Part shown: piece by piece, positions 4,594 through 58,069 of the stretch
Layout of the letters: the number at the start of each line of letters is the position of its first letter
Position numbering within the stretch: the first letter of the stretch is position 1
Assembly: GCF_021295095.1 (NCBI RefSeq)
Contig: NZ_JAJLQX010000005.1
Span: 1-64,000 of the forward strand
Direction: 5' to 3'
DNA: 64,000 bases
Source of the DNA: Phocaeicola oris
GTDB lineage: Bacteria; Bacteroidota; Bacteroidia; Bacteroidales; Bacteroidaceae
Translations under genes and position numbers: made by a program
The notes under the pieces: model-generated
What the model was told of the DNA's origin: nothing
The model's database searches: none
Seen by the model: only the letters and a program-made list of their open reading frames with translations

Positions 4594-4758
4594 CTCAAAC
4601 CTTTTTTATTGCGCAAGTTACAAAAAGATTCAATCATCACCAGACTATAAGATTACTTTTGTGTTCATTTGTCCGTTATTCCCACAATCCATATCAATAC
4701 CTGAGGACATTGTTAATTTATCTAAAAACATATTCATATAATCATATTCCAACATGAA

Positions 4759-4854
4759 TTCGATGAAATATATGTAACATCCTGTCAATAATTATTCGTT
4801 GACAGGGTGCCGCAAATTTGTTATCAAAAGATTGTGAAAAGTCAATACGTATAA
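4759..4854 (-). repeat. conserved hairpin flank of composite repeat, copy 1
   Basis: Read on the minus strand, this stretch matches 33492-33569 for roughly 80 bases with a few substitutions. It contains ACATCCTGTCAA at 4777-4788, paired with TTGACAGGGTGc at 4799-4810 around a 10-base loop. The two copies are in opposite orientation and each abuts a 22-bp palindrome array. Confidence 0.75.
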
Positions 4855-4942
4855 ACTGCCCAACTCATACGCATGAACCGAGCAACTCATACGCATGAAC
4901 TGAACAACTCATGCGGATCATTTTAGCAACTCATACGCATCA
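4843..4942. repeat. array of 12-bp palindromes at 22-bp period (TCATnCGnATGA type), copy A
   Basis: Five units begin at 4843, 4865, 4887, 4909 and 4931, each exactly 22 bases apart. The inner ones read TCATACGCATGA; the outer ones are degenerate. Spacers of 10 bases are partly alike (for example ACCGAGCAAC). The spacing equals about two turns of B-DNA. Confidence 0.85.
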
Positions 4943-5078
4943 GTTTTCACATTCATATATATCGAAATGTCGGTCGATATTGATTGGTTTGCCAAAAGGT
5001 ATATATTCGTTTAAAAAGAAGTAATGATAAACAGCTCATACGATTACTATTTTATTTCGCAGGATTTAGACTATATCA

Positions 5079-10961: not shown

Positions 10962-11427
10962 CTCTTATTTTTTATCATATTCAAAAATAAAAATAATTCA
11001 AATACAAACAATTAATAACATAACATTTTATAATAAAAATCCACACTATGATGATTTTTCAAGACTTATCGTATTTCTTATAAAATAAAAAAGAAAGGTC
11101 ATGCCGAACTTAATCCTTAGATAAAACGGCCTTGCAGCAGATTTAAACAGTATCTTCTTTATCTTGTCAGGCTAATTAAAGTTATCGTAAAGAGAGTAGA
11201 GAAAGTGATACGCATGAACCGTATAACTCATGCGTATGAATCGATCAACTCATCCGCATGAACCGATCAACTCGTCCGCATGAATCAACCAACTCGTCCG
11301 CATCACTTTAGCAACTCATATATATCACTTCACACATCCTCATAGACAGTTCAGTAGTTGCATACTGTTTGAACTCGTCGAACTCGTTTTCAATAGTATA
11401 ACTTTTGAGAATAAGAAAAATCTTTTT
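10962..11427. other. intergenic region with repeat array
   Basis: 466 bases without a gene between the FAD pseudogene and the dipeptidase gene. Apart from the six-unit array at 11206-11327 it is AT-rich and holds no recognised feature. Confidence 0.6.
11206..11327. repeat. array of 12-bp palindromes at 22-bp period (TCATnCGnATGA type), copy B
   Basis: Six units begin at 11206, 11228, 11250, 11272, 11294 and 11316. Examples are TCATGCGTATGA and TCATCCGCATGA. Spacers read AACCGATCAAC or close variants. The first unit opens with AAGTGATACGC and the fifth closes with GCATCACTTT, so the core array is capped by an inverted repeat. The hairpin flank of copies A and C is not seen here. Confidence 0.85.
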
Positions 11428-12241: not shown

Positions 12242-13723
12242 ATGTATTTATTAGGCTATGATGTAGGTAGCTCATCGGTCAAAGCAAGTCTTGTCCATGA
12301 AGAAACAGGTATATGTGTCGCTTCTGAATTCTATCCCAAACAGGAAGCACCTATTAAAGCGCCACAACCGGGTTGGGCAGAACAAGACCCTGAAACTTGG
12401 TGGAGTTACTTAAAATCGGCCACACAATCGGTACTTAACAACAGCAACGTAAAGGGTGATGAGATTGACGCAATAGGCATATCCTATCAAATGCACGGTT
12501 TAGTTTGTATAGATCAGCATCGCAACATCCTTCGTCCATCTATTATCTGGTGTGATTCGCGTGCAGTCTCTTACGGAGAAAAAGCATTTCAAACTTTAGG
12601 AAAAGAACGATGCCTAAATCATTTACTTAATTCTCCCGGCAATTTCACCGCTTCAAAATTAGCATGGGTGAAAAAGAATGAACCGAGAATTTTTGATAAA
12701 ATAGACAAAATCATGTTGCCCGGCGACTACATAGGAATGAAGTTGACCAATGAGGTATGTACTACGATAGAAGGTCTTTCAGAAGGAATGTTCTGGGATT
12801 TCAAAGAGAATCGTATAGCTAAGTTCCTTTTAGATTACTATGAGTTCAATCCAGAAATACTCCCTTCTATCCGCCCCACGTTCGGCGAACAAGGCAAAGT
12901 AAGCAAAGACGCAGCGAAAGAACTCGGAATAAGAGAAGGGATTCCTATCACATATCGTGCGGGTGATCAACCCAACAATGCATTATCACTTAATGTATTT
13001 AATCCCGGAGAGATTGCCTCAACAGCAGGAACATCGGGAGTAGTATATGGAGTACTCGGTGCTATCAATTATGATCCTAAATCGAGAATAAATACTTTCG
13101 CGCACGTTAACTACGGTACCGGCCAAACTCGTTTGGGCGTACTCCTCTGTATCAATGGTACAGGTATCCTGAATTCATGGATAAAACACAATATTGCCTC
13201 AGAGGAAGTATCGTATAATGAAATGAATGATGAAGCTGCAAAGATTCCTATCGGCTCGGAAGGGTTATCCATACTACCTTTCGGGAACGGTACCGAAAGA
13301 ATGTTAGAGAACAAAGAGATAGCATGCTCCATTCATGGACTGAATTTTAATATACACAAAAAAGCACATTTGATGCGAGCAGCACAGGAAGGGATTGTTT
13401 TTTCTTTCCGTTACGGAATAGATATTATGAGACAAATGGGTATGAACATCAATAAGATACATGCAGGTAATGCCAACATGTTCTTAAGTCCTGTTTTTCG
13501 TGATGCATTGGCCGGTATAACCGGAGCAACTATCGAATTATATAACACAGACGGTTCGGTAGGAGCAGCCAAAGGCGCAGGCATAGGAGCCGGTATTTAT
13601 AAAAACCATGAAGAGGCTTTTGCTACGCTCGAAAGAATAGCGGTCATAAAACCTAATCTTTCCGACCAGCCCAAATATGAAGAAGCATATACTCTTTGGA
13701 AAAGACATTTAAACATGTCCTAA
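12242..13723 (+). CDS. xylB: xylulokinase (FGGY family)
   Basis: 493 aa. Phosphorylates D-xylulose with ATP to xylulose 5-phosphate in the cytoplasm. The FGGY N-terminal phosphate-binding loop is seen as LGYDVGSSSVKAS. IGISYQMHGLV, the catalytic region YRAGDQPNNALS, STAGTSGVVYG and the C-terminal GNANMFLSPVFRD follow. The neighbouring xylose isomerase makes the substrate assignment strong. It is the first gene of a run of nine genes on one strand with gaps under 80 bases. No LacI- or GntR-type regulator is adjacent. Confidence 0.92.
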   Translation: MYLLGYDVGSSSVKASLVHEETGICVASEFYPKQEAPIKAPQPGWAEQDPETWWSYLKSATQSVLNNSNVKGDEIDAIGISYQMHGLVCIDQHRNILRPSIIWCDSRAVSYGEKAFQTLGKERCLNHLLNSPGNFTASKLAWVKKNEPRIFDKIDKIMLPGDYIGMKLTNEVCTTIEGLSEGMFWDFKENRIAKFLLDYYEFNPEILPSIRPTFGEQGKVSKDAAKELGIREGIPITYRAGDQPNNALSLNVFNPGEIASTAGTSGVVYGVLGAINYDPKSRINTFAHVNYGTGQTRLGVLLCINGTGILNSWIKHNIASEEVSYNEMNDEAAKIPIGSEGLSILPFGNGTERMLENKEIACSIHGLNFNIHKKAHLMRAAQEGIVFSFRYGIDIMRQMGMNINKIHAGNANMFLSPVFRDALAGITGATIELYNTDGSVGAAKGAGIGAGIYKNHEEAFATLERIAVIKPNLSDQPKYEEAYTLWKRHLNMS

Positions 13724-24862: not shown

Positions 24863-25413
24863 AAAAAAATAGCTGAATTTATCAGCAAAGCTTTTTAATT
24901 ACTTCTTTTTCAACATAAAACCGTCCAAGCCGAAAGCCGAGTAATAAAGGCTTCTCCTTTTGCAATTTTCCTTGATCGATTACTATCAACTCATTGCTTT
25001 TCAATAAACTGATAAATTAAATGCTGTTTTTACAAAGATAAGTATTTCGATTTATAATAAAAGAATATCATCCTTTCTTTAAATAACCTGCTAAACTCAT
25101 CTGCGAAAGATACTTTTTTCACCGGTTCTTTTTCTGACTTTTGCTTTGTCTTCCCGAAAATTTATACATAGAAACCTTGTGCCTCACGCACGTGATACAC
25201 ATGATTCACGCACGTGGTGCACGTGCACCACGCAGGTGAGCCACGTGCACCACATGCGTGAACCACCTAATTTCTCCGGATGATTATACTAACTCTTTTG
25301 ATGAAACATATTCATCATAAAGAGATTACGCAAAAACATCTTAATCGATCGAGAATTTCATTTCTAAAAAACTCACTATTACCTTCTTACTATTAAATAT
25401 AAATAGATTTGCC
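24863..25413. other. intergenic region between argS and the radical SAM gene
   Basis: 551 bases between divergent genes. It contains the CACGTG-type array at 25184-25261 and a short hairpin-like ATGAAACATATTCAT stretch near 25299. Otherwise AT-rich, with nothing else recognised. Confidence 0.6.
25184..25261. repeat. array of 12-bp palindromes at 22-bp period (TCACGnnCGTGA type)
   Basis: Four units begin at 25184, 25206, 25228 and 25250: TCACGCACGTGA, TCACGCACGTGG, CCACGCAGGTGA and CCACATGCGTGA, each exactly 22 bases apart. The spacers contain further CACGTG hexamers. The architecture is the same as the TCATnCGnATGA arrays but with another core. Confidence 0.8.
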
Positions 25414-25421
25414 TATATTTG
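25414..25421 (+). promoter_or_regulatory. -7 box (TATATTTG) for the radical SAM gene
   Basis: Exact TAnnTTTG match 17 bases before the ATG at 25439; it rules out the TTG start at 25409. Confidence 0.5.
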
Positions 25422-25438
25422 TACAAAATATCATTGGA

Positions 25439-26662
25439 ATGAATACACTCTCACCTTTTGCAAAACCACTGTATGTAATGCTGAAGCCTGTTGGAGCACA
25501 CTGTAATTTAGCATGCGACTACTGCTATTATCTGGAGAAATTGAACCTGTATCCAAATGCGCAACACGTCATGAACGATGAACTCCTTGAGAAATTCACA
25601 CAAGAATACATTGAGTCGCAGATGATGCCGGACGTTCTTTTTACATGGCATGGCGGTGAAACGCTGATGCGACCTCTTTCCTTTTATAAAAAAGCATTGG
25701 AATTTCAGAAAAAGTACGCAAAAGGAAGGAAAATAGACAACTGTATTCAAACGAACGGAACGCTTCTCACCGATGAATGGTGCCGTTTTTTTCATGACAA
25801 CAACTGGCTGGTTGGAATCTCTATCGACGGACCACAGGAATTCCATGATGAATATCGAAGAACACGGCACGGACTGCCTTCGTTCCGAAAAGTAATGCAT
25901 GGAATAGAGCTATTGAACAAATATCAAGTGGAATGGAACGCTATGGCAGTAGTGAATGATTTTAATGGTGACTATCCGCTTGATTTCTATCATTTCTTTA
26001 AACAGATTGGTTGTCATTATATTCAATTTACCCCAATTGTAGAACGAATCGCCAAACATTCCGACGGACGACATTTAGCTGCAGTAGAAGAAGAAAATGA
26101 TGAAACAGCCGACTTCTCCGTTGCTCCTGAACAATGGGGCAGCTTTACTTGTGCTATCTTTGATGAGTGGGTGAAGAATGATGTTGGAGATTACTTTATC
26201 CAACTGTTCGACAGTACGTTGGCCAACTGGATGGGCGAGCAACCGGGAGTTTGCTCGTTGGCTAAAACCTGCGGACATGCCGGCGTAATGGAATACAACG
26301 GTGATGTGTACTCGTGCGATCACTTTGTCTTCCCACAATATAAATTAGGGAATATCTATAGGGAAACATTAGTAGAAATGATGTACAGCAGTAAACAGCA
26401 GGCATTCGGTCAAGCAAAATATACCTCACTCCCCAAGCAGTGCAAACAGTGTCCATATCTGTTTGCTTGCAACGGTGAATGTCCGAAGAATCGGTTCTGT
26501 AAAACGAAAGATGGAGAAGTAGGGCTAAACTATCTCTGCAAAGGATACCAACAATTCTTTAATCATGTGGCACCATACATGGACTTCATGAAAAACGAAT
26601 TGCTGAATCAACGAGCTCCTGCCAATATTATGCAGGCCGTTAAAGAAGGAAAAATAAAATAA
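25439..26662 (+). CDS. anaerobic sulfatase-maturating enzyme-like radical SAM/SPASM protein
   Basis: 407 aa from the ATG at 25439. CNLACDYC near residues 22-29 is the CxxxCxxC motif holding the radical SAM [4Fe-4S] cluster. A cysteine-rich SPASM region follows (CSLAKTCGHAG, YSCDHFVFP, CKQCPYLFACNGECPKNRFC). It should oxidise a cysteine or serine of a sulfatase to formylglycine without oxygen, in the cytoplasm. No sulfatase with a CxPxR motif is encoded nearby, so its clients are elsewhere in the genome. Confidence 0.88.
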   Translation: MNTLSPFAKPLYVMLKPVGAHCNLACDYCYYLEKLNLYPNAQHVMNDELLEKFTQEYIESQMMPDVLFTWHGGETLMRPLSFYKKALEFQKKYAKGRKIDNCIQTNGTLLTDEWCRFFHDNNWLVGISIDGPQEFHDEYRRTRHGLPSFRKVMHGIELLNKYQVEWNAMAVVNDFNGDYPLDFYHFFKQIGCHYIQFTPIVERIAKHSDGRHLAAVEEENDETADFSVAPEQWGSFTCAIFDEWVKNDVGDYFIQLFDSTLANWMGEQPGVCSLAKTCGHAGVMEYNGDVYSCDHFVFPQYKLGNIYRETLVEMMYSSKQQAFGQAKYTSLPKQCKQCPYLFACNGECPKNRFCKTKDGEVGLNYLCKGYQQFFNHVAPYMDFMKNELLNQRAPANIMQAVKEGKIK

Positions 26663-31905: not shown

Positions 31906-31929
31906 ATGGTTTACGTAAACTCTGTGATA

Positions 31930-33345
31930 ATGGTAAAGAACAAAATTAACCGCCGAAAATTCTTAGAACTGTTTAGCACTGCAACAGCCTCTACCGCAGC
32001 ATTGCTGACCGGCTGTAAACAAAAGCCAAATGAACAGCAACTGATAGAAGACGAATACAAGACGCAAATTGAGCCCCCAACCAATAAGATGACTTATCGC
32101 ATTAATCCCAATACAAATGACAAAGTTTCCTTATTGGGTTATGGGATGATGCGACTGCCAACTACTGATGGAAAGGCAGGACGAGAAAGTAGAGCTCCTT
32201 TAGATCAAGAAGCTATCAACCATTTAGTCGATTACGCTATAGAACATGGTGTCAACTACTTTGACACATCACCTGCCTATTGCCAAGGAAGGTCGGAAGC
32301 CGCAACGGGTATCGCTTTACATCGACATCCTCGCGAAAGTTATTTTATAGCCACAAAAATGTCTAACTTTGCACCGGCAACTTTCCCACACGATGAATCT
32401 GTCCGCCTTTTCCAAAACTCATTGAAAAACTTACAAGTTGACTATCTTGACTATTACTTGTTGCATGGTATCGGGATGGGAGGCGGAATGGAAGTTTTTA
32501 ATGCCCGTTTCATTGATAACGGGATACTGGATTACTTGTTAGAGCAACGTAAAGCAGGGAAAATTCGCAACTTAGGTTTCTCTTACCACGGTGACATTAA
32601 AGTTTTCGATTTCTTATTGGAAAACCATGACAAATATCATTGGGACTTTGTTCAGATAGAGATGAACTACTTGGATTGGAGGCATGCACATGAAATAAAC
32701 GAACGAAATACGAATGCAGAATACTTGTATGGCGAACTGCTGAAGCGAAATATCCCGGCGGTTATTATGGAACCTCTTTTGGGAGGCCGTCTTTCAAATA
32801 TTCCTCAATATATTGTCGCGGAAATGAAACAGCGTAATCCGGAGCGTTCGGCTGCCTCATGGGCTTTCCGTTATGTAGGATCAAAGCCGAATGTTCTTAC
32901 AGCTTTAAGTGGTATGACTTATATGGAACATTTAAAGGATAACTTACTTTCTTATTGTCCTTTGAAGCCATTGACCGATGAAGAAGAAAATTTTTTATAT
33001 GACATTGCCCGTAAATTGGTTGGTTTGCAAACCATCCCTTGTAATGACTGCAAATATTGCATGCCATGCCCATACGGACTGGATATTCCGGGAATATTTG
33101 TCTATTATAATAAGTGTAAGAACGAAGGAACGCTTCCACAAGATACCGAAGATAAAGTATACGCAAAACTTCGCCGAAACTATTTGTTGGGAATGGACCG
33201 TAGCATCCCTAAACTACGTCAAGCAAACCACTGTGTAGGATGTAAACAATGTGAGCCACATTGTCCACAGAACATACGCATCCCCGATGAAATGCAGAAA
33301 ATTGACGCACAAATAGAGACTTTAAAGCAAGAAATGTTGAAGTGA
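31930..33345 (+). CDS. Tat-exported aldo/keto reductase with two [4Fe-4S] motifs
   Basis: 471 aa from the ATG at 31930. A twin-arginine motif (NRRKFLELFS) is followed by a hydrophobic stretch ending in LLTGC, which reads as a lipobox, so the protein may be a Tat-exported lipoprotein. The aldo/keto reductase barrel has YFDTSPAYCQGRSE, the YLDYYLLHG strand and KIRNLGFSYHG. The C-terminal part carries CNDCKYCMPCPYG and CVGCKQCEPHCP, two ferredoxin-like sets. Such proteins are common in anaerobes. The redox partner and substrate are unknown. Confidence 0.85.
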   Translation: MVKNKINRRKFLELFSTATASTAALLTGCKQKPNEQQLIEDEYKTQIEPPTNKMTYRINPNTNDKVSLLGYGMMRLPTTDGKAGRESRAPLDQEAINHLVDYAIEHGVNYFDTSPAYCQGRSEAATGIALHRHPRESYFIATKMSNFAPATFPHDESVRLFQNSLKNLQVDYLDYYLLHGIGMGGGMEVFNARFIDNGILDYLLEQRKAGKIRNLGFSYHGDIKVFDFLLENHDKYHWDFVQIEMNYLDWRHAHEINERNTNAEYLYGELLKRNIPAVIMEPLLGGRLSNIPQYIVAEMKQRNPERSAASWAFRYVGSKPNVLTALSGMTYMEHLKDNLLSYCPLKPLTDEEENFLYDIARKLVGLQTIPCNDCKYCMPCPYGLDIPGIFVYYNKCKNEGTLPQDTEDKVYAKLRRNYLLGMDRSIPKLRQANHCVGCKQCEPHCPQNIRIPDEMQKIDAQIETLKQEMLK

Positions 33346-33394
33346 TACAAATGAGTTGCCATATTTATCAGAAGATTTTTTTGTTTCATCTAAG

Positions 33395-33485
33395 TGAAAC
33401 GAATGATTCATCCGCATGAGTTGCCAAAGTCATCCGCATGAGTTGATCGGTTCATCCGCATGAGTTGACCGGTTCATGCGTATCA
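33395..33485. repeat. array of 12-bp palindromes at 22-bp period (TCATnCGnATGA type), copy C
   Basis: Units begin at 33408, 33430, 33452 and 33474, exactly 22 bases apart, three reading TCATCCGCATGA. A degenerate half-phase unit lies at 33395. The whole is capped by AAGTGA at 33393 and TCACTT at 33483, an inverted repeat. Confidence 0.85.
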
Positions 33486-33491
33486 CTTTTC

Positions 33492-33569
33492 TTCGACCTC
33501 TTGATGACAAATTCGCGACATCCTGTCAACGAATAATTATTGACAGGATGTTACTTATATTTCATCGAA
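33492..33569 (+). repeat. conserved hairpin flank of composite repeat, copy 2
   Basis: Homologous to the reverse complement of 4759-4840. It contains ACATCCTGTCAA (33518-33529) and its exact complement TTGACAGGATGT (33540-33551) around a 10-base loop, followed by a TATATTTCATCGA stretch shared with copy 1. It lies between convergent genes and could also terminate transcription. Confidence 0.75.
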
Positions 33570-33601
33570 GTCACACTAAAATAGCACTTTATGTCTGAAG
33601 T

Positions 33602-46474: not shown

Positions 46475-46530
46475 TCATAGTATAAACCAGCAAAGTGATC
46501 CCGTATAAATCATCTAATTCATACGTATCA
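46475..46530. repeat. degenerate TCATnCGnATGA-type array, copy D
   Basis: Units near 46475, 46496 and 46519 (last TCATACGTATCA) with 21-23-base spacing; AAAGTGAT opens and ATCACTTT closes the pair, as in the longer arrays. Confidence 0.6.
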
Positions 46531-46926: not shown

Positions 46927-48339
46927 TTACCATTTATCTGTGCGGAAAGGATAAACCGGTAAGTTTGATTTACTCAACAGATTCCCAAGGATGGCATCGC
47001 CGAAACAATAGCGGACAGCAACGATTTTGTCCACTTTTAGAGAGGTAACTTCAACCTGTTTACCGTTAATAATCTCTGCTGTGGCCGGATGAAATACTTT
47101 ATCTGAGCCGGCTACTTCAAATCCTGTGATATTCGGATTGGCGATGAAGCCTTTTTCATTATGTGAGAAAGAAAGGATAGCTTTATTGCCGTTAACCTTC
47201 ATCGACAGATACATCGGTCCCCATGGGTCGCTGCCTTTCCAAGTATCGACCATTGACATGGCAGCTAAACGACGGCCGATGTTCAGTTTATCTCCCGGAT
47301 GGATATTATAAGAAACTTCATCCGGAGAAACCAAATCGTTGGTACATATCATTCCTGCATTCGTTGATTCCAAAGCTGCTGCCAATTGTTGTTCACGCAA
47401 CTTGGCTGTTTGGTCGGTATTGCTATAATTAAATGGGGCAATCTCTACAAAGTAGAAAGGCATACTGTCGTTTCCCCAATCTTTACGCCAGCCGGTAATT
47501 AAATCTTTCATTTTGTTGGCGTAATATTTATCACCTACATTTGATTCACCTTGATACCAGAGGAAGCCATAAGCGGTGTAATTCTTAATAGGATAAATCA
47601 TAGCGTTATAAAGCAGACTACCTGTTTTGTTGTTCCACTTATCCTGTGATTCATAGCTAACATTATCATATTTCTTGGTGTATTCAGGAGCCAGCCATGT
47701 GTCTATGTTAGTACCTCCCCAGCAAGTGACAAGAATACCGATGGGACGACCGGTCCAGCCTGAACGATACATCGCGAAGGTGTAGGCGGTGGCACTGAAG
47801 TACGGAGTATTTTCCGGAGAAGCGACTTTCCAGTCACCATGGCATTCCTCTCGAGGAGAACCGGCACGTTCTTCTTTCACCATCAAACAGTTAACATGAA
47901 ACCTGCCGGACTGTTGAATTAATGATTCAGAATGCTTGATAGGACAATCGGGTAACCATCCGCGAACAGGCATTTCCATATTGCTTTGGCCGGAGCAGAT
48001 CCAAACCTCACCAATTAATACGTTATGGATGGTGTAAGCACCGTCATTGGGTTGGGAAATGGTAATGGTGTACGGAGTATAACTCGGATCGATGGTGCTG
48101 AGTTCAGTCAGCCATTTTCCTTCATTATCACTTTGCGTCTGGACCGTTTCATTATTCCATGAGCCGGTAACGGTAACAGTTACATTTTTTGAGGCGTGTC
48201 CCCAAATCTTCACTTTTGTATTGTGCTGCAAAACGCAGTTGTCACTGAATACATTCGGTACAGAAATCTGTGCAGAAATATTTATTGGGGCAAATAGAAT
48301 GATCACCCCTAAAAGAATAGAATTAAAAATTCCTTTCAT
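46927..48339 (-). CDS. sialate O-acetylesterase-like SGNH hydrolase
   Basis: 470 aa with a signal peptide (to about residue 23). An N-terminal jelly-roll-like region (VPNVFSDNCVLQHNTKVKIWG) precedes the SGNH domain: CSGQSNMEMP with the nucleophilic Ser, TCWGGTNIDTW, WYQGESN and the C-terminal Asp-x-His region NIHPGDK. Such enzymes remove acetyl groups from sialic acids or from plant xylan and pectin. With the xylan theme elsewhere in the window, either is possible. It has its own promoter and terminator. Confidence 0.87.
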   Translation of the reverse strand: MKGIFNSILLGVIILFAPINISAQISVPNVFSDNCVLQHNTKVKIWGHASKNVTVTVTGSWNNETVQTQSDNEGKWLTELSTIDPSYTPYTITISQPNDGAYTIHNVLIGEVWICSGQSNMEMPVRGWLPDCPIKHSESLIQQSGRFHVNCLMVKEERAGSPREECHGDWKVASPENTPYFSATAYTFAMYRSGWTGRPIGILVTCWGGTNIDTWLAPEYTKKYDNVSYESQDKWNNKTGSLLYNAMIYPIKNYTAYGFLWYQGESNVGDKYYANKMKDLITGWRKDWGNDSMPFYFVEIAPFNYSNTDQTAKLREQQLAAALESTNAGMICTNDLVSPDEVSYNIHPGDKLNIGRRLAAMSMVDTWKGSDPWGPMYLSMKVNGNKAILSFSHNEKGFIANPNITGFEVAGSDKVFHPATAEIINGKQVEVTSLKVDKIVAVRYCFGDAILGNLLSKSNLPVYPFRTDKW

Positions 48340-48377
48340 AGTAATATTAATTTGTTGTTAAACTCGTTATTGTTGTA

Positions 48378-48408
48378 CAAAAGTATTTAATCTTTGTACA
48401 ACATGCAA
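48378..48408 (-). promoter_or_regulatory. promoter of the sialate O-acetylesterase gene
   Basis: On the minus strand TTG (48408..48406), 20 bases, then TACTTTTG (48385..48378), a full match to the consensus, 38 bases before the ATG. Confidence 0.65.
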
Positions 48409-49220
48409 TATTATCAGTGCCGAAATAGTTAAATTATTTGGATGCGATGAATCACCCGACTCATACATATAACCGAGTAAATACTATTAATAAATACCGA
48501 AACTCAACTGTATACCGGGCACAGAACGAAGCGTATAAAATGAGTTGAACACAAAAACGGCACATTGCTTTATGTCTCAAATAGTTACGAGCGTAGATAG
48601 ATTATGAGCCAGTAAAACGAAACGTTTATATTGGTTTACTTTTGGTTTACATTTGACGATCATTGGAACTCAAAAAAGGTGGCGAAGGTTTACATGGGGT
48701 TCCGGATGCTTAACATAAAACTGAGATGAATGGAATTGAGGATGGATAATCTGCTCTTTTTTACTGTAAACGGATTGTAATAAAGCAATCTACGCTTATT
48801 TCGGGCGGTTCAGGGGCAATGTATAAGGACTAAGAAAGAAAGGGCGTAGAACGGCCTTAAAACGCCGTTTGAAAGGGTGGTAAAATCTGAATGGTTTTGC
48901 CACCTTTTTTTTCGTGCATTTTGGGGTGATTTTAGGCACTGGTTGTTCAGGTGTTTGTTCAAAGTGGTTGTTCATTTTTCAAAAAGTGGTTGTTCAAAAG
49001 TGGGTTTTGGAGGGGTACGATACAAGGGGGGTAAAATACTACTTTTCCTGCGATATGTTATTTTTTTGTGCCGATAGCCCCCCCCCTAAATGCCACCACT
49101 TTTTTAAGTTTTACCGTTATTAAATAACGGAATATTAGACACTTTTCTACTTTTAGGGGTATAAAAGAGGGGGGGGGGATAGATGCAAGGGGGGAATAAG
49201 GGAGAGGTGAAGTAATCCAT
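48409..49220. other. intergenic region containing the unresolved left end of the prophage
   Basis: About 810 bases without a convincing gene. A degenerate 22-bp-type repeat (TCATACATATAA at 48461) marks host DNA up to about 48560. TTGGTTTAC occurs twice at 48631 and 48642. Four GTTGTTCA-like direct repeats lie at 48939-48996, and runs of G or C at 49026-49194. The join of host and prophage lies somewhere between 48560 and 49100 but the terminal dinucleotides cannot be fixed because the right end is not in view. Confidence 0.5.
48939..48996 (+). repeat. four GTTGTTCA-like direct repeats near the prophage end
   Basis: GGTTGTTCA at 48941, TTGTTCA at 48955, and the identical GTGGTTGTTCA at 48964 and 48986 (22 bases apart). 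Candidates for transposase subterminal sites or repressor binding sites. Confidence 0.6.
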
Positions 49221-49835
49221 TCATTCTTTCTTGGTTATTTCAATAATAATATGAGCAGCATTATTGGGTTTACCATATTTGTCGTAGAAAAGCGATTCCG
49301 TCTGCGAGACAGAGTTGGCAAACTTGCCACCGTTATTTACCGATAAAGCTGCAATTATTATTTTGGCAGTATTAGCAACTTGATTTATCCTTTTTTGTTT
49401 TGCTGTGCTCGTTTTCAGTTTTAATATCTGATTTTCGAGATCGAGACAATATCTTTTGAAAAAGTCCACGTAACAAATCATCAAACTCTCTTGAGTAATA
49501 CACTTAGGATTGCCTATAACCTCTATTTGCCGTTGGGATAAATGCCTGTCTGGATACCTACTCTTGTATTCCTGCTCTGCCTGATTCGCAAATTCGATAT
49601 AATCTTTATCTGTTGGGGGTAACAGTTCTGGCAACAACTTGGATAGAAAATTAATTCGGCTTTTGAACGTCTCAAACTTTGTCGTATTATGCAGAATGTA
49701 CGCAGTCTCAAGCAATTGGAGCAACTTTCCAACATACTGTTTTCTCTTCAGCTCTCTTTGCTTGGAATTGTTCCCTAATGAAAGGAGAAAATAAAAAAGA
49801 ATAACTGCAATTACAATTATATATGTTATAGCCAT
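49221..49835 (-). CDS. phage membrane-anchored protein of unknown function
   Basis: 204 aa from the ATG at 49835, 26 bases after the repressor stop; the frame extends upstream into the repressor gene and that part is rejected. One N-terminal membrane helix (AITYIIVIAVILFYFLLSL) is followed by a charged, helical region (ETFKSRINFLSKLLPELL) and a basic stretch. No family recognised. Because it is expressed with the repressor, it may act in the lysogen, for instance in exclusion of other phages; this is inference only. Confidence 0.6.
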   Translation of the reverse strand: MAITYIIVIAVILFYFLLSLGNNSKQRELKRKQYVGKLLQLLETAYILHNTTKFETFKSRINFLSKLLPELLPPTDKDYIEFANQAEQEYKSRYPDRHLSQRQIEVIGNPKCITQESLMICYVDFFKRYCLDLENQILKLKTSTAKQKRINQVANTAKIIIAALSVNNGGKFANSVSQTESLFYDKYGKPNNAAHIIIEITKKE

Positions 49836-49861
49836 GATAATATAAATATTTAAGAGAAATA

Positions 49862-50596
49862 CTAAACAAGTCGAACAAGACCGATGATGGTACTGAGTGA
49901 ACGAATATCGGACTTGGGAAGTTGGAATGGTTTGAAGCGAGAGTTTTCGGAAACACAGAGGATACACTTATCGTCTTTCTCGCACTCCTCCACACGCTTG
50001 ACGAGGGCACCTTGGCTGGTGTCAAGGACATAGATACTACCCCACTGAAAGAAGAGTATATCGGAAATTTTACGACAGGCAATGATGTCGCCGTTGTTGT
50101 AGAGCGGCACCATGGAGTCTCCAGACACACGGATGAGGAAGTTAGCCCCCTTTGCCTCGAACTCGGGGATGGTGTAGTGGTCGCAGTTCTCCAAATACAC
50201 GCCATCGCTGTCAGCAGCGGGAAAACCTGCTATAGCATCAAGCGGGATAAGCGGGATGCCCTTTGCTGATTTTCGTGCCATCTTTTCTTGCTGAACTGCC
50301 ATATTCTGTGTATCTTTGGAGATAGAAAGAGACTGTTTTTCAGCAGGTGGACTACTTGGAGTACCTTTCGTTTTGAGCATTGATCCCTTACCTGTAAGCA
50401 GCCATTCATGATTGATATCGGGCGCATAGGCAAGAAATCTCGATATATTTTCTTCGCTTATCCCATTGTTTTGCCCAAGGATGCCTCGTGTAGTCCCTGA
50501 AGCTTTATAATATTCATAATCAGAAACACCTTTTTTAGATAAATAAAGCGAGATATTTTGCTTTATTTGTGATTTTTCTTGCTTATTTTCTTGCAT
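49862..50596 (-). CDS. phage repressor, HTH plus S24 (LexA-like) peptidase
   Basis: 244 aa. The N-terminal 70 residues form a Cro/CI-like helix-turn-helix (YYKASGTTRGILGQNNGISEENISRFL). A linker leads to the S24 domain: a probable self-cleavage pair Ala123-Gly124 (DAIAGFP), nucleophile Ser161 in VSGDSMVP and general base Lys200 in GALVKRV. It should repress the early promoter at 50591-50621 and be inactivated by RecA after DNA damage. Mu itself uses a different repressor, so induction by SOS is a real difference. Confidence 0.88.
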   Translation of the reverse strand: MQENKQEKSQIKQNISLYLSKKGVSDYEYYKASGTTRGILGQNNGISEENISRFLAYAPDINHEWLLTGKGSMLKTKGTPSSPPAEKQSLSISKDTQNMAVQQEKMARKSAKGIPLIPLDAIAGFPAADSDGVYLENCDHYTIPEFEAKGANFLIRVSGDSMVPLYNNGDIIACRKISDILFFQWGSIYVLDTSQGALVKRVEECEKDDKCILCVSENSRFKPFQLPKSDIRSLSTIIGLVRLV

Positions 50597-50621
50597 AGTC
50601 GAAATATCTTGTTTACCTTTG
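50591..50621 (+). promoter_or_regulatory. early (lytic) promoter of the prophage
   Basis: TTG at 50591-50593, 20 bases, then TACCTTTG at 50614-50621. It faces the early genes and overlaps the repressor start region. Confidence 0.6.
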
Positions 50622-50626
50622 CAATG

Positions 50627-50642
50627 TGTTCATTAAAGAACA
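50627..50642. promoter_or_regulatory. candidate repressor operator
   Basis: TGTTCATTAAAGAACA has 5-bp inverted arms (TGTTC/GAACA) around 6 bases and lies between the two divergent -7 boxes. The half-site is also present in the direct repeats near the left end. Confidence 0.4.
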
Positions 50643-50648
50643 AGTGGT

Positions 50649-50656
50649 CAAATATA
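50649..50656 (-). promoter_or_regulatory. candidate -7 box (TATATTTG) for the repressor gene
   Basis: Minus-strand TAnnTTTG match 52 bases upstream of the repressor ATG at 50596, divergent from the early promoter. Confidence 0.4.
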
Positions 50657-50697
50657 AGAAAAAAGGCCGAGAAATAAGAATTTAAATATTAAAGATT

Positions 50698-51054
50698 ATG
50701 AAAAAGAAAAATCGCAACCGTTGTAATAACGGCAGAACGGAAGAACTGGTCATCAGTATTGATGTTACCCAAGAATTAAAACAAGCTCTCAGAGAGCGTC
50801 AATCAGAGGAAGCATCGTTTCCTCGGAGTGGTCGGACTGAGCATAGACTTGCTGAGCTTGAGCGGCAGCGTAAGAATCTACTTTTCTTATTATCTCGTGT
50901 TCTTCAAGCCGCCCCTGAATATAGGCTACGTCCATCAGAACTTGCAGTTGATGTCGTCGGCGACTTATCCTGTCTTTCTCAGGAGTCGGAAGCGTATCTG
51001 AGATTTCGAATGATGCGAGATTGTCCCTCTCGAACTTCCAGAGACAATATTTAG
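50698..51054 (+). CDS. possible first early phage protein
   Basis: 118 aa, 76 bases behind the early promoter, with a very basic N-terminus (MKKKNRNRCNNGRTEEL) and ISIDVTQELKQALRER, which looks protein-like. Most of the frame overlaps an opposite-strand frame at 50789-51172 that also looks coding. Both may be real only if they overlap tail to tail; the C-terminal half of this one is less convincing. Confidence 0.35.
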   Translation: MKKKNRNRCNNGRTEELVISIDVTQELKQALRERQSEEASFPRSGRTEHRLAELERQRKNLLFLLSRVLQAAPEYRLRPSELAVDVVGDLSCLSQESEAYLRFRMMRDCPSRTSRDNI

Positions 51055-51172
51055 CGAACCAAACCTTGTCATCCTTTTGTTTGTCATGCTCAAACATGGT
51101 TGGCAGAATGGACATTAACAAGTTTCTAAGGGCATCGAACTGAGCTTTGAGTATGATTAAAGCAGTATCCAT
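50789..51172 (-). CDS. small phage protein on the strand opposite the early genes
   Basis: 127 aa. MDTALIILKAQFDALRNLLM and FEHDKQKDDKVWFAKYCLWK have a natural residue balance and helical pattern. A TATTTTTG box lies 25 bases upstream (51204..51197). No family recognised. It would be transcribed against the early operon, placing it with the lysogenic genes. Confidence 0.5.
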   Translation of the reverse strand: MDTALIILKAQFDALRNLLMSILPTMFEHDKQKDDKVWFAKYCLWKFERDNLASFEISDTLPTPEKDRISRRRHQLQVLMDVAYIQGRLEEHEIIRKVDSYAAAQAQQVYAQSDHSEETMLPLIDAL

Positions 51173-51196
51173 ATTATTCCATTTAGAATTTGGCTA

Positions 51197-51204
51197 CAAA
51201 AATA
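51197..51204 (-). promoter_or_regulatory. candidate -7 box (TATTTTTG) for the opposite-strand phage gene
   Basis: Minus-strand TAnnTTTG match 25 bases upstream of the ATG at 51172; no -33 element seen. Confidence 0.35.
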
Positions 51205-51235
51205 ATGATAATGTTTGAATTAAATAAGTGAGATT

Positions 51236-51592
51236 ATGGAAAAGTACATTCACATCAAGAAAGAAGACCGTGAGTTTATCGCAAAGTCATGTAAGGTTAC
51301 CGAGCGCATGATTTTCTACGCCACTCATTACGAGAAGGACACGGATCTTGCGAAGAAGATACGCACGATTGCCTTACAGCGTGGCGGAATTGTAATGGTG
51401 AAAGCTCCTGAGATAGAAACCCTGCATGATGCAGACGGCTATATGAGACAGTACCTCGGTGATGTTCTGCTGGAATTTTCAAAGACGGAGCCTGTGTGCG
51501 ACGTTTACCAAAAAGGTAAAAAGGTACGCCACTTTGATAACGTAATGACGAGCGACATTCAAAAAATTCAAGACTGGGCAGCAACTTTGTAA
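51236..51592 (+). CDS. early phage regulatory-like protein, unknown
   Basis: 118 aa. The N-terminal IHIKKEDREFIAKSCKVTERMIFYATHYE resembles a winged-helix or helix-turn-helix segment, and the gene sits directly before the transposase, where Mu has ner. A Ner-like DNA-binding role is therefore possible but not shown. It starts in front of muA by 9 bases and is surely co-transcribed with it. Confidence 0.65.
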   Translation: MEKYIHIKKEDREFIAKSCKVTERMIFYATHYEKDTDLAKKIRTIALQRGGIVMVKAPEIETLHDADGYMRQYLGDVLLEFSKTEPVCDVYQKGKKVRHFDNVMTSDIQKIQDWAATL

Positions 51593-51601
51593 GAGGGCGA
51601 T

Positions 51602-53596
51602 ATGGAGTATTACGGTAATAAACTTTGCATATCATACGGAGAACTGATAGACGGTGGCATCGTAAGTGTTTCCAACTATCAGAATTTGACTCGTCGTAAC
51701 AAAGTGGACGTAGTCCGCCGTGGTGGTGGTGCGAGTGGCTGTTGTGCTCTGATTGCTATAGATAGTTTACCATCGAAGTACAAGGAAAAGGTAGAGAAGG
51801 TATATCCCGGAGGCGACGAAGTGAGAGTGCGACACTGGATAATATCAAACTACGAAACAGACCAACAGGCGATAGCTTTTTTCAGTGATCGTGGCAAGGC
51901 TGGCATTGAACTGCCACCAGAAAAAGTAGCTGAATATACACAGAATGCCTCTGTGCTGAATACTTGCATCAAACTCTATGAACGTGCGAAAGACTATCAT
52001 CGTTTGATGGGAGACAAGTACAACTGGGATATGATGGCCAAGACCATTGAAACGCTGCGCGAGAAGTTTGGACATACACTCCCAACCAGCACCCTCCGCT
52101 TCAGAAAGAAGGTGAACGAGTACAAGCGTGGGGGCTACGGCTGCCTTATCAGCGGCAAGTTCGGCAACCAGAGTGCAAGGAAGGTGGACTACAAGACTAA
52201 GAAGCTGGTTCGCAGCTTGGCAGTCCTGTCCAACAAGCCCTTTAACAGTACCGTCCATGAAATGTATATCAGTTTTGTCTGTGGCGAGCTTGACGTTTAT
52301 AACCCGAAGACCGGCGAGCTGTTCAATCCCGATGACTTCACGGATAAGAACGGCGACCCGAAGTTCCTGAGCGAGAGCACCATCAATAACATTCTGAACG
52401 AGCCGGCAACCCGTATGCTGATAGAGAAGTCGCTGTCAAGCTGGAGTACCTTCATGCACGAGCAGATGCCCCACATGCACCGTCATGGCGGCGACTTCTC
52501 ACTTTCGCAGATAACAATGGACGACGTGGACCTGACGCGCAAGCTGAAGGACACGAAGCAGAGAGTACACGCCTACTATGCCTACGATGTGGTAAGCCAG
52601 TGCGTGGTTGGTGCGAGCTATGCGCGTAAGAAAGACGAGAGCCTCGTTGTGGACTGCTTCCGGGATATGTTCCGCCTGATAGAAAGGCACGGCTGGGGAA
52701 TGCCTGCCGGCATAGAGGTGGAGAACCACCTGATGACACAGTACAAAGACGGCTTCCTGCAAGCCGGTGTTGCCTTCCCGTTCGTACGTTTCTGCGCTCC
52801 GCAGAACTCTCAGGAGAAATATGCCGAACCATTGAACGGTGCGAAGAAGCGCAGCATCATCCACAAGAACCACGAGGGCATCGGACGCTTTTACGGCAAG
52901 GGCAAATGGCGTCAGGAGTACAAGAAAATCAGCGACGAGACCAACGAACTGTACGAGGACAAGGAATACTTCAGCTATGAGCAGCTGGTTGCCGACGATA
53001 AAGCGGACACCTACGAATGGAACCACGCCTTGCACCCTAACCAAAAGAAGTTCCCCGGAATGACGAGGTGGGACGTTCTCTGCGAGCGTATCAATCCGAC
53101 GCTGCTGCCTTTGGATAAGCTGACACTGGCCCGCCATATAGGGGAACACGTCGATACGAGCATCCGAAGGAACTCGACCGTAAGGGTTGCCTATGAGGAT
53201 TGGTGGCTAAGCGATACCAGCGTGTTGGAGAAACTTGCCCCTAACAACTATAAGGTAACCGCTTATTGGCTGCCCGACGAGGAAGGCAAAGCCACCGAGG
53301 TGTTCATATTTCAAGGCGACAAGTACATCGACAGGGTGGAGAAGGTGCAGACCTTCAACAGAGTGATGGCCGAGCAGACCGATGAGGACAAGGCTGCCTT
53401 TGTGAAGCAACAGAAGAAGATTGCCAAGTTTAATAAGTACATCGAGGAGAACGCCATTGACAGATTGGGAATATTGAAGCCCGTCCCCCAGACAAAGCAG
53501 GAAGCCTCCCAAGAGCTGATAGCCTCCGCCCCTCAGGAATACGAGCCGGTGATGCCGTTGCCAAGCGCATCGGACAGGGCCGTAGCCGACATATAG
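51602..53596 (+). CDS. MuA-type DDE transposase
   Basis: 664 aa, the usual MuA size. N-terminal DNA-binding region (SYGELIDGGIVSVSNYQNLTR), an inner helical domain, then the retroviral-integrase-like core. ITMDDVDL (D307/D308) is the first catalytic aspartate. The position of the second reads GIEVENHLM, with Glu instead of the usual Asp-Asn, and the third glutamate is near SQEKYAE (E405). The C-terminal beta barrel and a MuB-contact tail follow. It cuts and joins the phage ends for integration and replicative transposition. The next gene is its MuB partner. Confidence 0.92.
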   Translation: MEYYGNKLCISYGELIDGGIVSVSNYQNLTRRNKVDVVRRGGGASGCCALIAIDSLPSKYKEKVEKVYPGGDEVRVRHWIISNYETDQQAIAFFSDRGKAGIELPPEKVAEYTQNASVLNTCIKLYERAKDYHRLMGDKYNWDMMAKTIETLREKFGHTLPTSTLRFRKKVNEYKRGGYGCLISGKFGNQSARKVDYKTKKLVRSLAVLSNKPFNSTVHEMYISFVCGELDVYNPKTGELFNPDDFTDKNGDPKFLSESTINNILNEPATRMLIEKSLSSWSTFMHEQMPHMHRHGGDFSLSQITMDDVDLTRKLKDTKQRVHAYYAYDVVSQCVVGASYARKKDESLVVDCFRDMFRLIERHGWGMPAGIEVENHLMTQYKDGFLQAGVAFPFVRFCAPQNSQEKYAEPLNGAKKRSIIHKNHEGIGRFYGKGKWRQEYKKISDETNELYEDKEYFSYEQLVADDKADTYEWNHALHPNQKKFPGMTRWDVLCERINPTLLPLDKLTLARHIGEHVDTSIRRNSTVRVAYEDWWLSDTSVLEKLAPNNYKVTAYWLPDEEGKATEVFIFQGDKYIDRVEKVQTFNRVMAEQTDEDKAAFVKQQKKIAKFNKYIEENAIDRLGILKPVPQTKQEASQELIASAPQEYEPVMPLPSASDRAVADI

Positions 53597-53691
53597 GAAT
53601 AACATTAACAAAATTGATTATCGGCAGCATTCGGCAAAACAAGCAAGCTTGATTGCGCTCATTTGCACGATAATTAAAATGCCATTAGAAT

Positions 53692-54567
53692 ATGATTACA
53701 ACAGGCAATAAACAGCGGATATTGGATGCGATAGCAGCCAACCGCAAGAACTATCCGAGCGATGCCAAACACGCATCGGCATTAGGCATCTCCGCAAGCG
53801 TTTACAACGGTTTGAAGAAGGGACAGACGGAAAAAGCCCTGAGCGATGCCAACTGGGTGAACATTGCCCGAAAGCTGGACGTGAACCTCCGTGAGACGAT
53901 AGAGTGGAAAGGCGCACAGACGGAAACTTTCAAATACATCAGCCTTCAGATGGCGGCGTGTCAGGAACGCAGCCTTAGCGTGATACTCTGCGACCTGCCG
54001 AACATCGGCAAGACATACACGGCACGCTGGTATGTGAACGAACATCGCAATGCGGTATATATAGACTGCTCACAGGTGAAGACCAAGCGTGCGCTGGTGA
54101 AGAAGATTGCTCAGGAGTTTGGCGTGGGCGTGAGCGGCAAGTATCAGGACACATACGAGGACCTTGTGTATTACCTGCGCTCTATGGAGCGTCCTTTGGT
54201 AGTTCTTGACGAAGCCGGGGACCTACAGTACGAGGCATTCTTGGAGCTCAAGGCACTGTGGAACGCAACCGAGATGTGCTGCGGCTGGTATATGATGGGC
54301 GCTGACGGTCTGCGTGTCAAGATAAACCGGATGGTGGAGCATCAGAAGGTGGGTTATGCCGAGATATTCTCCCGTTATGGTGGTAAATACAGCCGTGTTA
54401 CGCCTGATCAAGACGATGACCGCCGACGCTTCCTTATGGAGCAGGCGCGCGCCGTAGCGACCGTAAATGCCTTGAAAGGAACGGATATTGGTCAGATAGT
54501 ACGCAAGAGCGCAGGAGGACTTAGACGAGTTTACACGGAAATTGAAAAGATAAAAAGAGGAGCATAA
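53692..54567 (+). CDS. MuB-type transposition target ATPase
   Basis: 291 aa. A Cro-like helix-turn-helix (ASALGISASVYNGLKKG, about 28-44) precedes an AAA+ domain with a variant Walker A (CDLPNIGKTYTA, about 100-111) and Walker B (PLVVLDEAGDL, about 168-178). MuB binds target DNA, protects phage DNA from self-insertion and delivers targets to MuA. It follows muA by 95 bases, consistent with one early operon. Confidence 0.9.
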   Translation: MITTGNKQRILDAIAANRKNYPSDAKHASALGISASVYNGLKKGQTEKALSDANWVNIARKLDVNLRETIEWKGAQTETFKYISLQMAACQERSLSVILCDLPNIGKTYTARWYVNEHRNAVYIDCSQVKTKRALVKKIAQEFGVGVSGKYQDTYEDLVYYLRSMERPLVVLDEAGDLQYEAFLELKALWNATEMCCGWYMMGADGLRVKINRMVEHQKVGYAEIFSRYGGKYSRVTPDQDDDRRRFLMEQARAVATVNALKGTDIGQIVRKSAGGLRRVYTEIEKIKRGA

Positions 54568-54569
54568 TT

Positions 54570-54812
54570 ATGATGACGAAGATAGAAATGGAGGCTATGA
54601 ATGCCGTTATCGGTATCCGAAAGGAGATGGAAAAAGGTAACGAGGTAAATTGGGAACAGCGCAGGTATGAAATTGCAAAAGAGTGCCTTCCTATGGTTTA
54701 CAAGCTGGCTTCCGAAATCGCAGTTCACGAACTCACAAGCACTCAACAGGTAGCACAGATTTGCATTTGCCTTGCTGATAATCTCATTAATGAACTGAAA
54801 ACGAAAAAATAG
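54570..54812 (+). CDS. small early phage protein, unknown
   Basis: 80 aa, all-helical by pattern (MEAMNAVIGIRKEMEKGNEV, EIAVHELTSTQQVAQICICL). Starts 2 bases after muB and ends 2 bases before the ATPase gene, so it is part of the early operon. No family recognised. Confidence 0.6.
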   Translation: MMTKIEMEAMNAVIGIRKEMEKGNEVNWEQRRYEIAKECLPMVYKLASEIAVHELTSTQQVAQICICLADNLINELKTKK

Positions 54813-54814
54813 TA

Positions 54815-55450
54815 ATGAGCAAACGAGCGTACAGTCCGAAAGAAATTGCAGCCAAGAAATGGGTGACATTGCCGTGGGGCGAGCGGTGGAGCAAGCCATT
54901 TGGCTTCCCTGCCGAGAATGCCTCGTGGTTCATCAGCGGCGCGAGCGCACAGGGCAAGAGTTCGTTCGTTATGCAGTTGGGCAAGGAACTGTGCAAGTAT
55001 GGTCCTGTTCTCTATATGAGCTACGAGGAAGGCGTGAATCAAAGTTTCCAACGCCGCATGGACTATCTGAATATGAATGAAGTACAAGGGCATTTCAGAG
55101 TTGTAACCGACGAGTCGATAGATGAACTTGCCAAGCGGCTGGCCAAGCCAAAATCGCCAAAATTCATCATTGTGGACTCCTTTCAAGTAGGGTGCTGGGA
55201 CTATGGTTGGAGTTACCCTGCCGCGGTAGCATTGATGAAGAGGTTCAGGCGCAAGTGCTTTATCTTTATCAGCCAAGAGCACAAGAGCGAGCCTTCGGGC
55301 AAGCCGGCAGTGAGCCTGCGGTATATCTGCGACATGAAGGTGCGCGTGATGGGCTACAAGGCTTACTGTTTAGGCAGGTCAATCGGTGAAGCTGGCAACC
55401 ATTATGTGGTCTGGAAAGAAGGTATTTTGAAAACAAGTAACAATTTATAG
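54815..55450 (+). CDS. RecA-superfamily phage ATPase
   Basis: 211 aa. Walker A is SGASAQGKSSF (about 41-51) and Walker B is FIIVDSF (about 117-123). LYMSYEEG and FIFISQEHKSE fit the RecA/DnaB-like P-loop fold. It may load or assist phage DNA replication; there is no DnaB N-terminal domain, so it is not a full helicase. The strand and spacing place it in the early operon. Confidence 0.75.
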   Translation: MSKRAYSPKEIAAKKWVTLPWGERWSKPFGFPAENASWFISGASAQGKSSFVMQLGKELCKYGPVLYMSYEEGVNQSFQRRMDYLNMNEVQGHFRVVTDESIDELAKRLAKPKSPKFIIVDSFQVGCWDYGWSYPAAVALMKRFRRKCFIFISQEHKSEPSGKPAVSLRYICDMKVRVMGYKAYCLGRSIGEAGNHYVVWKEGILKTSNNL

Positions 55451-55452
55451 CT

Positions 55453-55620
55453 ATGGCAAATAAGAGAGACGGCCTGTTGTATCGGTTGAGAAAAAAAGGA
55501 ATAAAGTGCAACACGGGAAAGCGAGAGATTTATTTTCCTTATGGAAAAGATCCGATGGAGGTCGTACAGGTAAGGAGGTTGCATGATGAGTATAAATTCA
55601 ATGTTCAATTTACAATATAG
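55453..55620 (+). CDS. small phage protein, unknown
   Basis: 55 aa (MANKRDGLLYRLRKKG to VQFTI), starting 2 bases after the ATPase stop and ending 3 bases before the next start. Basic N-terminus and a beta-rich remainder. Tight packing supports it as a gene. Confidence 0.55.
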   Translation: MANKRDGLLYRLRKKGIKCNTGKREIYFPYGKDPMEVVQVRRLHDEYKFNVQFTI

Positions 55621-55623
55621 ATA

Positions 55624-55938
55624 ATGGGAAAGAAAGTGTATATCAGTGGCGCGATTGCGCATTACGACATGAATGAGAGAAAGGCGGTATTTAAGGCAGC
55701 CGAAGAGTTTCTGAAGGCAGAAGGTTATCACCCTGTAAATCCTTTCGAAAACGGTCTGCCTCAACCCGGAGACTGGCGAGAGCACATGCGGCGTGACATT
55801 GCGCTGTTACTGGAGTGTGACTACATCTACATGTTGGACGGCTGGTGGCAGAGCAAAGGAGCAAAGTTGGAGCTCGACGTGGCCAGTTCGTGCGGTATTG
55901 CTCCGATGTTTGAGGTCATAGAGATAAATGATGTATAA
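55624..55938 (+). CDS. DUF4406 protein, nucleoside deoxyribosyltransferase-like
   Basis: 104 aa. VYISGAIAHYD, HPVNPFENGLPQ, DIALLLECDYIYMLDGWWQSKGA and the following acidic helix match DUF4406, a short relative of nucleoside 2-deoxyribosyltransferases. It could act on nucleotides or on their derivatives during phage growth. Such genes are frequent in Bacteroides phages and mobile elements. Confidence 0.8.
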   Translation: MGKKVYISGAIAHYDMNERKAVFKAAEEFLKAEGYHPVNPFENGLPQPGDWREHMRRDIALLLECDYIYMLDGWWQSKGAKLELDVASSCGIAPMFEVIEINDV

Positions 55939-55958
55939 ATCAATTAAAAATCAAAGTT

Positions 55959-56426: not shown

Positions 56427-56431
56427 AAAAG

Positions 56432-56575: not shown

Positions 56576-56588
56576 AAAACAATCAGCT

Positions 56589-56747: not shown

Positions 56748-56764
56748 CTTAAAAAAGAAAAGCA

Positions 56765-57427: not shown

Positions 57428-57442
57428 GGAGGAGAAAGGAAT

Positions 57443-58045: not shown

Positions 58046-58069
58046 CTTCATATTATGCCGCGAATGATA

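What the first reader, a model, noticed from the sequence alone, without database searches (positions are those of the whole stretch)
11206..11327. Arrays of 12-bp palindromes phased at exactly 22 bp (TCATnCGnATGA)
Three intergenic arrays (4843-4942, 11206-11327, 33395-33485) and a degenerate one (46475-46530) carry imperfect palindromes TCATnCGnATGA. In the three full arrays the units start exactly 22 bases apart, two turns of DNA, so every palindrome would face the same side of the helix. Arrays B, C and D open with AAGTGA and close with TCACTT. Units vary at n positions but keep the symmetry, which suggests selection on a protein-binding or hairpin-forming site. A similar design is known for the BrickBuilt elements of Porphyromonas, but the sequence here was not compared.
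Basis: partly seen in the sequence, partly recalled or inferred. Interest (0 to 1): 0.75.

Follow-up and report, generated by a model that had tools for sequence, protein, structure and literature searches.

The report
Mobile element carrying 22-base repeat arrays
The repeated palindromes are the inside of a small parasitic DNA element that has spread around this bacterium's genome, and their spacing is kept at 22 bases far more strictly than their sequence, which hints that the spacing itself matters.

Summary
The genome holds 363 TCATnCGnATGA sites against 1 for the reversed control; all 162 pairs with a gap of 0-29 are exactly 22 bp apart. The arrays are internal minisatellites of a MITE family with inverted ends TAACGTGARTTCGAYGAA and, in the best-preserved copies, a 7-bp TANNNTA target duplication. 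The same ends bound an IS982-family insertion sequence whose ends lie in this genome. A second unit, TCACnnnnGTGA, shares the 22-bp phase. Phase is kept although units differ from consensus at 24% of positions, while the non-repeated arm of the same elements carries many indels. A congener has an unrelated dyad family with the same 12+10 layout. A selected RNA hairpin is not supported by covariation. Best reading: a transposon-borne row of operator-like sites in two-turn register; the binding protein is unidentified. New variant of a known kind (MITE with minisatellite).

The parts
4843..4964 (-). Array A: six 12-bp units at 22-bp steps (4843, 4865, 4887, 4909, 4931, 4953; first and last degenerate). 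Strand given is the element's own orientation.
   Evidence: orientation by linkers
4751..4767 (+). Terminal inverted repeat of element A (its right end), 1 mismatch to AACGTGARTTCGAYGAA; the other end of A was not mapped
11206..11327 (-). Array B: six units (11206, 11228, 11250, 11272, 11294, 11316), the last degenerate
11374..11390 (-). Terminal inverted repeat of element B (its left end), 4 mismatches; the other end is degenerate
33386..33485 (+). Array C: five units (33386 of mixed type TCATCTAAGTGA, then 33408, 33430, 33452, 33474)
33561..33577 (-). Terminal inverted repeat of element C (its right end), 3 mismatches
46475..46530 (.). Degenerate array D; only the unit at 46519 is within 1 mismatch; no end with 4 or fewer mismatches found nearby
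25184..25283 (.). Array E: units TCACGCACGTGA, TCACGCACGTGG, CCACGCAGGTGA, CCACATGCGTGA, TTCTCCGGATGA at 22-bp steps; related layout, no element end with 5 or fewer mismatches within the stretch scanned (24950-25500)
33520..33549 (.). Inverted repeat ATCCTGTCAA..TTGACAGGAT in the right part of element C; a near copy lies in element A at about 4779-4808
   Evidence: read by eye

Best explanation
The arrays are the internal minisatellite of a non-autonomous transposable element (MITE; 376-448 bp in the better-bounded copies) whose ends are those of an IS982-family insertion sequence of the same genome, which most likely moves it (this part about 0.9 likely). Shown: inverted ends, 7-bp target duplication in the best-preserved copies, dozens of copies, two unit types in one 22-bp phase. 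Inferred (about 0.4): each 12-bp dyad is a site for a dimeric DNA-binding protein, and the 22-bp step puts neighbouring dimers on about the same face of the helix so that they bind cooperatively, much as initiators do on plasmid iterons. The protein, and whether the element or the host profits, are unknown.
For: Inverted ends 41 times, control 0. TSD 7/7 in L130, L131, L134 and 6/7 in L125, L135, L141 of 30 copies. End within 4 mismatches beside 17 of 27 arrays against 73 of 1000 random places. IS982 kinship. Phase: of 199 successive cores within 70 bp, 189 at 22, 6 at 44, 4 off-phase, while the right arm of the same elements has 42 indels per 561 substitutions (23 distinct events). Arms 94-100% kept, linkers 37-90%. 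Unrelated dyad with the same 12+10 layout in congener G016: 91 of 91 matches at 22 bp, 15 of 15 spacings at 22 in 7 copies.
Against: No binding protein is known. 24 of 30 copies show no TSD (0-4 of 7), many because an end is degenerate or could not be placed. 10 of 27 arrays have no end within 4 mismatches nearby. No complete IS982 copy was recovered from this genome, only ends and 5' frames. n/n' asymmetry is not what a fully symmetric operator would show. Spacing may be inherited or kept by unequal exchange. Most congener arrays did not pass the dyad shuffle test (18 of 23 failed).
Confidence: 0.5

Rival explanations
1. Functionless minisatellite inside a MITE: units arise by tandem duplication and are spread by transposition; spacing stays constant because units are copied whole and misregistered units are lost in unequal exchange.
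For: Unit number varies from 2 to 7. BrickBuilt is a precedent (PMC4596501). The dyad differs between congeners.
Against: Homogenisation should remove substitutions and indels alike, yet units differ from consensus at 768 of 3212 positions with 4 of 199 intervals off-phase. Arms are kept more than linkers: 119 against 502 changes, each of 1460.
Confidence: 0.3
2. The array acts as an RNA (or single-stranded DNA) rod: units pair with each other, and equal unit length keeps the pairing register.
For: Array B on the element strand folds at z -6.7 and array A at z -3.9 against dinucleotide shuffles. The element strand folds better in 31 of 36 arrays because the common linker GTTGATCGAT pairs with itself using G.U. 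[quoted passage not shown]
Against: Real arrays fold no better than column-shuffled ones (mean z +0.25 and +0.03); no covariation inside linkers (514 against 511 expected; distinct linkers 298 against 298). Core centres avoid symmetry. No Rfam match in the window.
Confidence: 0.15
3. Host regulatory element (terminator, insulator or operator of neighbouring genes) kept for the benefit of the adjacent genes.
For: 23 of 27 arrays lie between predicted ORFs (2 overlap ORF predictions, 2 are at contig edges), while 92% of random 80-bp placements fall inside ORFs.
Against: Intergenic placement is usual for MITEs. Flanking genes are 9 co-directional, 8 convergent, 6 divergent. The exact pair is absent from 59 of 59 other genus genomes.
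Confidence: 0.05

Closest known systems
BrickBuilt MITE of Porphyromonas gingivalis (PMC4596501)
   Same: A MITE with an internal minisatellite of about two helical turns, dyad-bearing repeats, variable unit number, intergenic, dozens or fewer copies, ends shared with an insertion sequence
   Different: 23-nt unit, ends GAGACC..GGTCTC assigned there to the IS5 family, TSDs of unequal length; here 22-nt units of two types, ends ACGTGARTTCGA, 7-bp TANNNTA TSD
MITE239 and ISPg3 of P. gingivalis (table in PMC4596501)
   Same: MITE239 left end ACGTGAGTTCGA equals the first 12 bases here; ISPg3 end ACGTCAGTTCGA differs by one base
   Different: That paper reports no mini- or microsatellite in the 236/700-type elements and puts ISPg3 in the IS5 family; sequences were not compared here
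IS982-family insertion sequences
   Same: Same ends; element left end 82-90% identical to the IS 3' end over 42-51 bp in eight places; annotated relatives
   Different: The MITE has no transposase frame and has gained arrays
Plasmid iterons (recalled)
   Same: Direct repeats about 22 bp apart that place bound proteins on one side of the helix; an analogy of working only
   Different: Scattered over the genome inside a MITE; no initiator protein or origin was sought or found

Membership tests
MITE | Terminal inverted repeats | tested here: met
   17 of 27 arrays with an end within 4 mismatches
MITE | Target site duplication | tested here: met
   7 bp, 7/7 in 3 and 6/7 in 3 of 30 copies; 24 of 30 show none, most with degraded ends
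MITE | Many copies, no transposase gene | tested here: met
   36 right-arm matches; lengths 376-448 bp in better-bounded copies; absence of a transposase frame follows from length, not from a family search
Derivative of an IS982-family element | Ends shared with an IS982 element of the same genome | tested here: met
   both ends bound one IS copy in Prevotella nigrescens; DDE_Tnp_1_3
Derivative of an IS982-family element | Mobilised by that transposase | not testable with these tools
   needs a mobility assay
BrickBuilt | 23-nt repeat unit | tested here: not met
   22 bp
BrickBuilt | Ends GAGACC(T/A)T(T/C)GCA | tested here: not met
   ends are TAACGTGARTTCGAYGAA
Iteron array | Bound by a cognate initiator near an origin | not tested
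   no protein or origin was sought
Structured RNA | Covarying base pairs | tested here: not met
   no Rfam match in window

The most novel reading that the evidence does not exclude
Two-turn dyad arrays are a general, lineage-specific operator code spread by MITEs in this genus: each lineage keeps the 12+10 bp geometry but changes the dyad, matched by a co-evolving DNA-binding protein that coats the arrays and thereby silences, insulates or helps mobilise the elements.
Probability: 0.2. Interest if true: 0.8.

Novelty: new variant of a known kind. Interest (0 to 1): 0.5.

Why it matters
It identifies the arrays as cargo of a mobile element and names the likely mover. It gives a measurable sign of selection on spacing, more than on sequence, in a bacterial minisatellite. 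The same 22-bp layout with an unrelated dyad in a second species makes 'why two helical turns?' directly testable by footprinting and spacing mutants.

Tried and rejected
BrickBuilt membership: rejected on period and ends. RNA rod: attractive for array B but not supported over 36 arrays. One conserved host-protein site across the phylum: rejected as main reading, since 0 of 394 other genomes of a phylum sample hold an adjacent exact pair. Orientation relative to genes: no preference seen by eye. Stop codons in every frame as a purpose of the units: considered, not tested. Resemblance of TGTTTCAC half-sites to ParB parS sites: recalled, not tested. The Fisher test has its zero by construction (units were chosen in phase), so I rely on the distance table. 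The dyad test on congener arrays was mixed: 5 of 23 arrays of period 21-22 passed p<0.05, and the three GACT..AGTC arrays did not; G016 and G001 were sampled more after their arrays were seen. Literature: nine searches showed no description of this element in that library, which lacks most subscription papers. An earlier count gave rougher congener totals (25 genomes, about 830 kb, about 62 arrays); the figures here (26, about 926 kb, 54) come.

Full report
What is there. The arrays were read directly and placed unit by unit. The genome (2.98 Mb, 50 contigs, window = start of contig 46) holds 363 exact TCATnCGnATGA cores; the reversed control pattern gives 1. With any gap of 0-29 between two cores there are 162 pairs, with the gap fixed at 10 also 162, so every such pair is at 22 bp. 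A fifth array of related units lies at 25184-25283.

What it belongs to. Comparing array flanks in 456 kb (392 kb of contigs C1-C4 plus the window, 27 arrays) showed a shared right arm and sharp ends. The ends are inverted repeats: left TAACGTGAGTTCGACGAATT, right ATTTCATCGAATTCACGTTA. The pattern AACGTGARTTCGAYGAA with up to one mismatch occurs 41 times (control 0). The 129-bp right arm matches 36 times, of which the 30 with loci were examined. Four of these 30 have perfect ends: L130 (TAAGATA), L131 (TAAATTA) and L134 (TATCTTA) have identical 7-bp flanking repeats and L125 matches at 6 of 7. L135 and L141 also match at 6 of 7; the other 24 match at 0-4, many with an end that is degraded or could not be placed. 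An end with 4 or fewer mismatches lies within 420 bp of 17 of 27 arrays, against 73 of 1000 random places; with 2 or fewer, 11 of 27 against 15 of 1000. Window arrays A, B and C have ends with 1, 4 and 3 mismatches. This is a MITE; for 10 of 27 arrays the link is not shown.

Its likely mover. Eleven contig ends examined break about 110 bp inside repeated sequences with the same ends: seven of one kind, four of another. The first kind is 82-90% identical over 42-51 bp to element left ends in eight places. The second leads into an open frame MITENKVTEIFCMADDF... with relatives in 82 plasmid-collection records; of the 12 listed, four are annotated IS982 family transposase. A hand-typed longer frame gave no Pfam or NCBIfam match. 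In Prevotella nigrescens the two kinds of end bound one copy, the transposase being split in two frames; the C-terminal part matches DDE_Tnp_1_3, the N-terminal part no family. A PF01609 search of this genome gave 6 matches, none shown to be this IS, and no complete copy of it was recovered here. One locus (C1:343-1210, L135) joins an IS982 5' end to the element's right half and is flanked by 6 of 7 matching bases; an assembly error cannot be excluded.

Anatomy. There are two unit kinds, TCATnCGnATGA and TCACnnnnGTGA, both 12 bp with 10-bp linkers, sometimes in one array. The second kind (pattern TTTCACNNNNGTGA twice) gives 123 pairs genome-wide, control 0, and all 100 listed rows are at 22 bp. 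In 515 kb (the 456 kb plus 22 chosen loci), 199 successive cores lie within 70 bp of each other: first kind 110 at 22, 6 at 44, 1 at 14; second kind 58 at 22; unlike neighbours 21 at 22, 3 at 65. In 36 arrays of three or more units, units differ from one consensus at 768 of 3212 positions, linkers at 502 of 1460, core arms at 119 of 1460; the right arm in 30 copies shows 561 substitutions and 42 indels in 3823 columns, 23 of the indels distinct, in 23 of 30 copies. At that ratio I would expect tens of off-phase intervals among 199; 4 are seen. Relatedness of copies and gene conversion make this strong but not proof. The 74 interior units chosen by their neighbours keep arm positions at 94-100%, except position 2 (C 70%, G 27%); linker positions range from 37 to 90%.

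Symmetry. Of 66 exact cores 3 are symmetric at n/n', 21.5 expected. Few founder types (CCGC, GCGT, GCGG) may explain this. It fits half-sites read separately better than a stem.

RNA. Against dinucleotide shuffles array B folds at z -6.7 on the element strand (-3.7 on the other), A at -3.9 (-2.0), C at -2.5 on both. The element strand folds better in 31 of 36 arrays, because the common linker GTTGATCGAT pairs with itself using G.U. But arrays fold no better than column-shuffled ones (mean z +0.25 and +0.03), and pairs inside linkers do not co-vary (514 against 511; distinct linkers 298 against 298). Rfam has no match in the window.

Place. 23 of 27 arrays lie between predicted ORFs, 2 overlap ORF predictions, 2 are at contig edges; 92% of random 80-bp placements fall inside ORFs. 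ORFs were called by a simple length rule, not by a gene finder.

Relatives. The N10 pair is absent from 59 of 59 other same-genus and 40 of 40 same-order genomes, and a pair at any gap 0-29 from 394 of 394 others in a phylum sample. The right arm has no match in 58 of 59 other genus genomes; the one match covers 23 bases. The exact end pattern occurs in 12 of 59 other genus genomes. In about 926 kb from 26 congeners, 23 of 54 tandem arrays (period up to 100) have period 21 or 22; 8 of the 23 come from G016, sampled more after its arrays were seen, and 5 of 23 pass the dyad shuffle test. In this genome 27 of 31 arrays of period 19-25 have period 22. In G016 an unrelated family, GACTGTAYRGTC plus 10, lies in a dispersed element of about 300 bp whose ends I could not define. 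A whole-genome search gives 91 matches counted by strand, all 34 bp long, that is 22-bp steps, control 0. In 7 distinct copies from 17 loci, 15 of 15 spacings are 22 while the flanks carry 7 indels and 123 substitutions.

How it probably works. The element moves by IS982 transposase (inferred). The array is best read as a row of dimer sites held in register at about two helical turns (inferred). Which protein binds, and who profits, is open.

Compared with what is known. MITEs with internal minisatellites are known in P. gingivalis: BrickBuilt (23 nt) and 464/PgRS (41 nt). The same paper mentions 22-nt tandem repeats of unstated place in strain W83 and predicts long stem-loops for BrickBuilt (PMC4596501; abstract, passages 13-14, section 5, section 7 part 1 of 2, section 8). 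Of PMC10969869 and PMC5771137 I saw passages only. The present element shares the design with BrickBuilt but neither period nor ends; its first 12 bases equal the MITE239 left end in that paper's table. I call it a new variant of a known kind.

Noticed in passing
window 48001-64000: G+C rises to 45-49% from 37-41% before; the ORF 59569-62097 matches a Mu-type portal and Phage_Mu_F with a PBECR2 nuclease-like domain at its end, so a Mu-like prophage is likely here.
   Followed up: partly
window 33343-33354: The ORF 31906-33345 (aldo/keto reductase with 4Fe-4S domains) ends in a TGA that lies in TGATACAAATGA, a unit-like stretch at the left of element C; insertion may have shaped the gene's end.
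   Followed up: no
G000 C1:343-1210 (L135): A chimera of an IS982 5' end and the right half of the MITE with 6 of 7 matching flanking bases: a possible intermediate in MITE birth, or an assembly error.
   Followed up: partly
G000 contigs C8, C12, C16, C19, C23, C28, C29, C32, C34: Contigs end about 110 bp inside the IS982-type repeat: the draft assembly breaks at this insertion sequence.
   Followed up: partly
L205 (G044) 13079-13170: A congener array with unit TCACTCCAGTGA + 10 at 22 bp, close to the second unit type here; that genome also has 14 exact end-pattern matches.
   Followed up: no
L146 and L214 (G001, G017): Two congeners share a 21-bp array TGGAATGTATATTCCA + 5.
   Followed up: no
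L022 and L047: TCATACGTATGA arrays with 22-24 bp steps in a Nocardia and in a Spirochaetia MAG, outside Bacteroidota.
   Followed up: no
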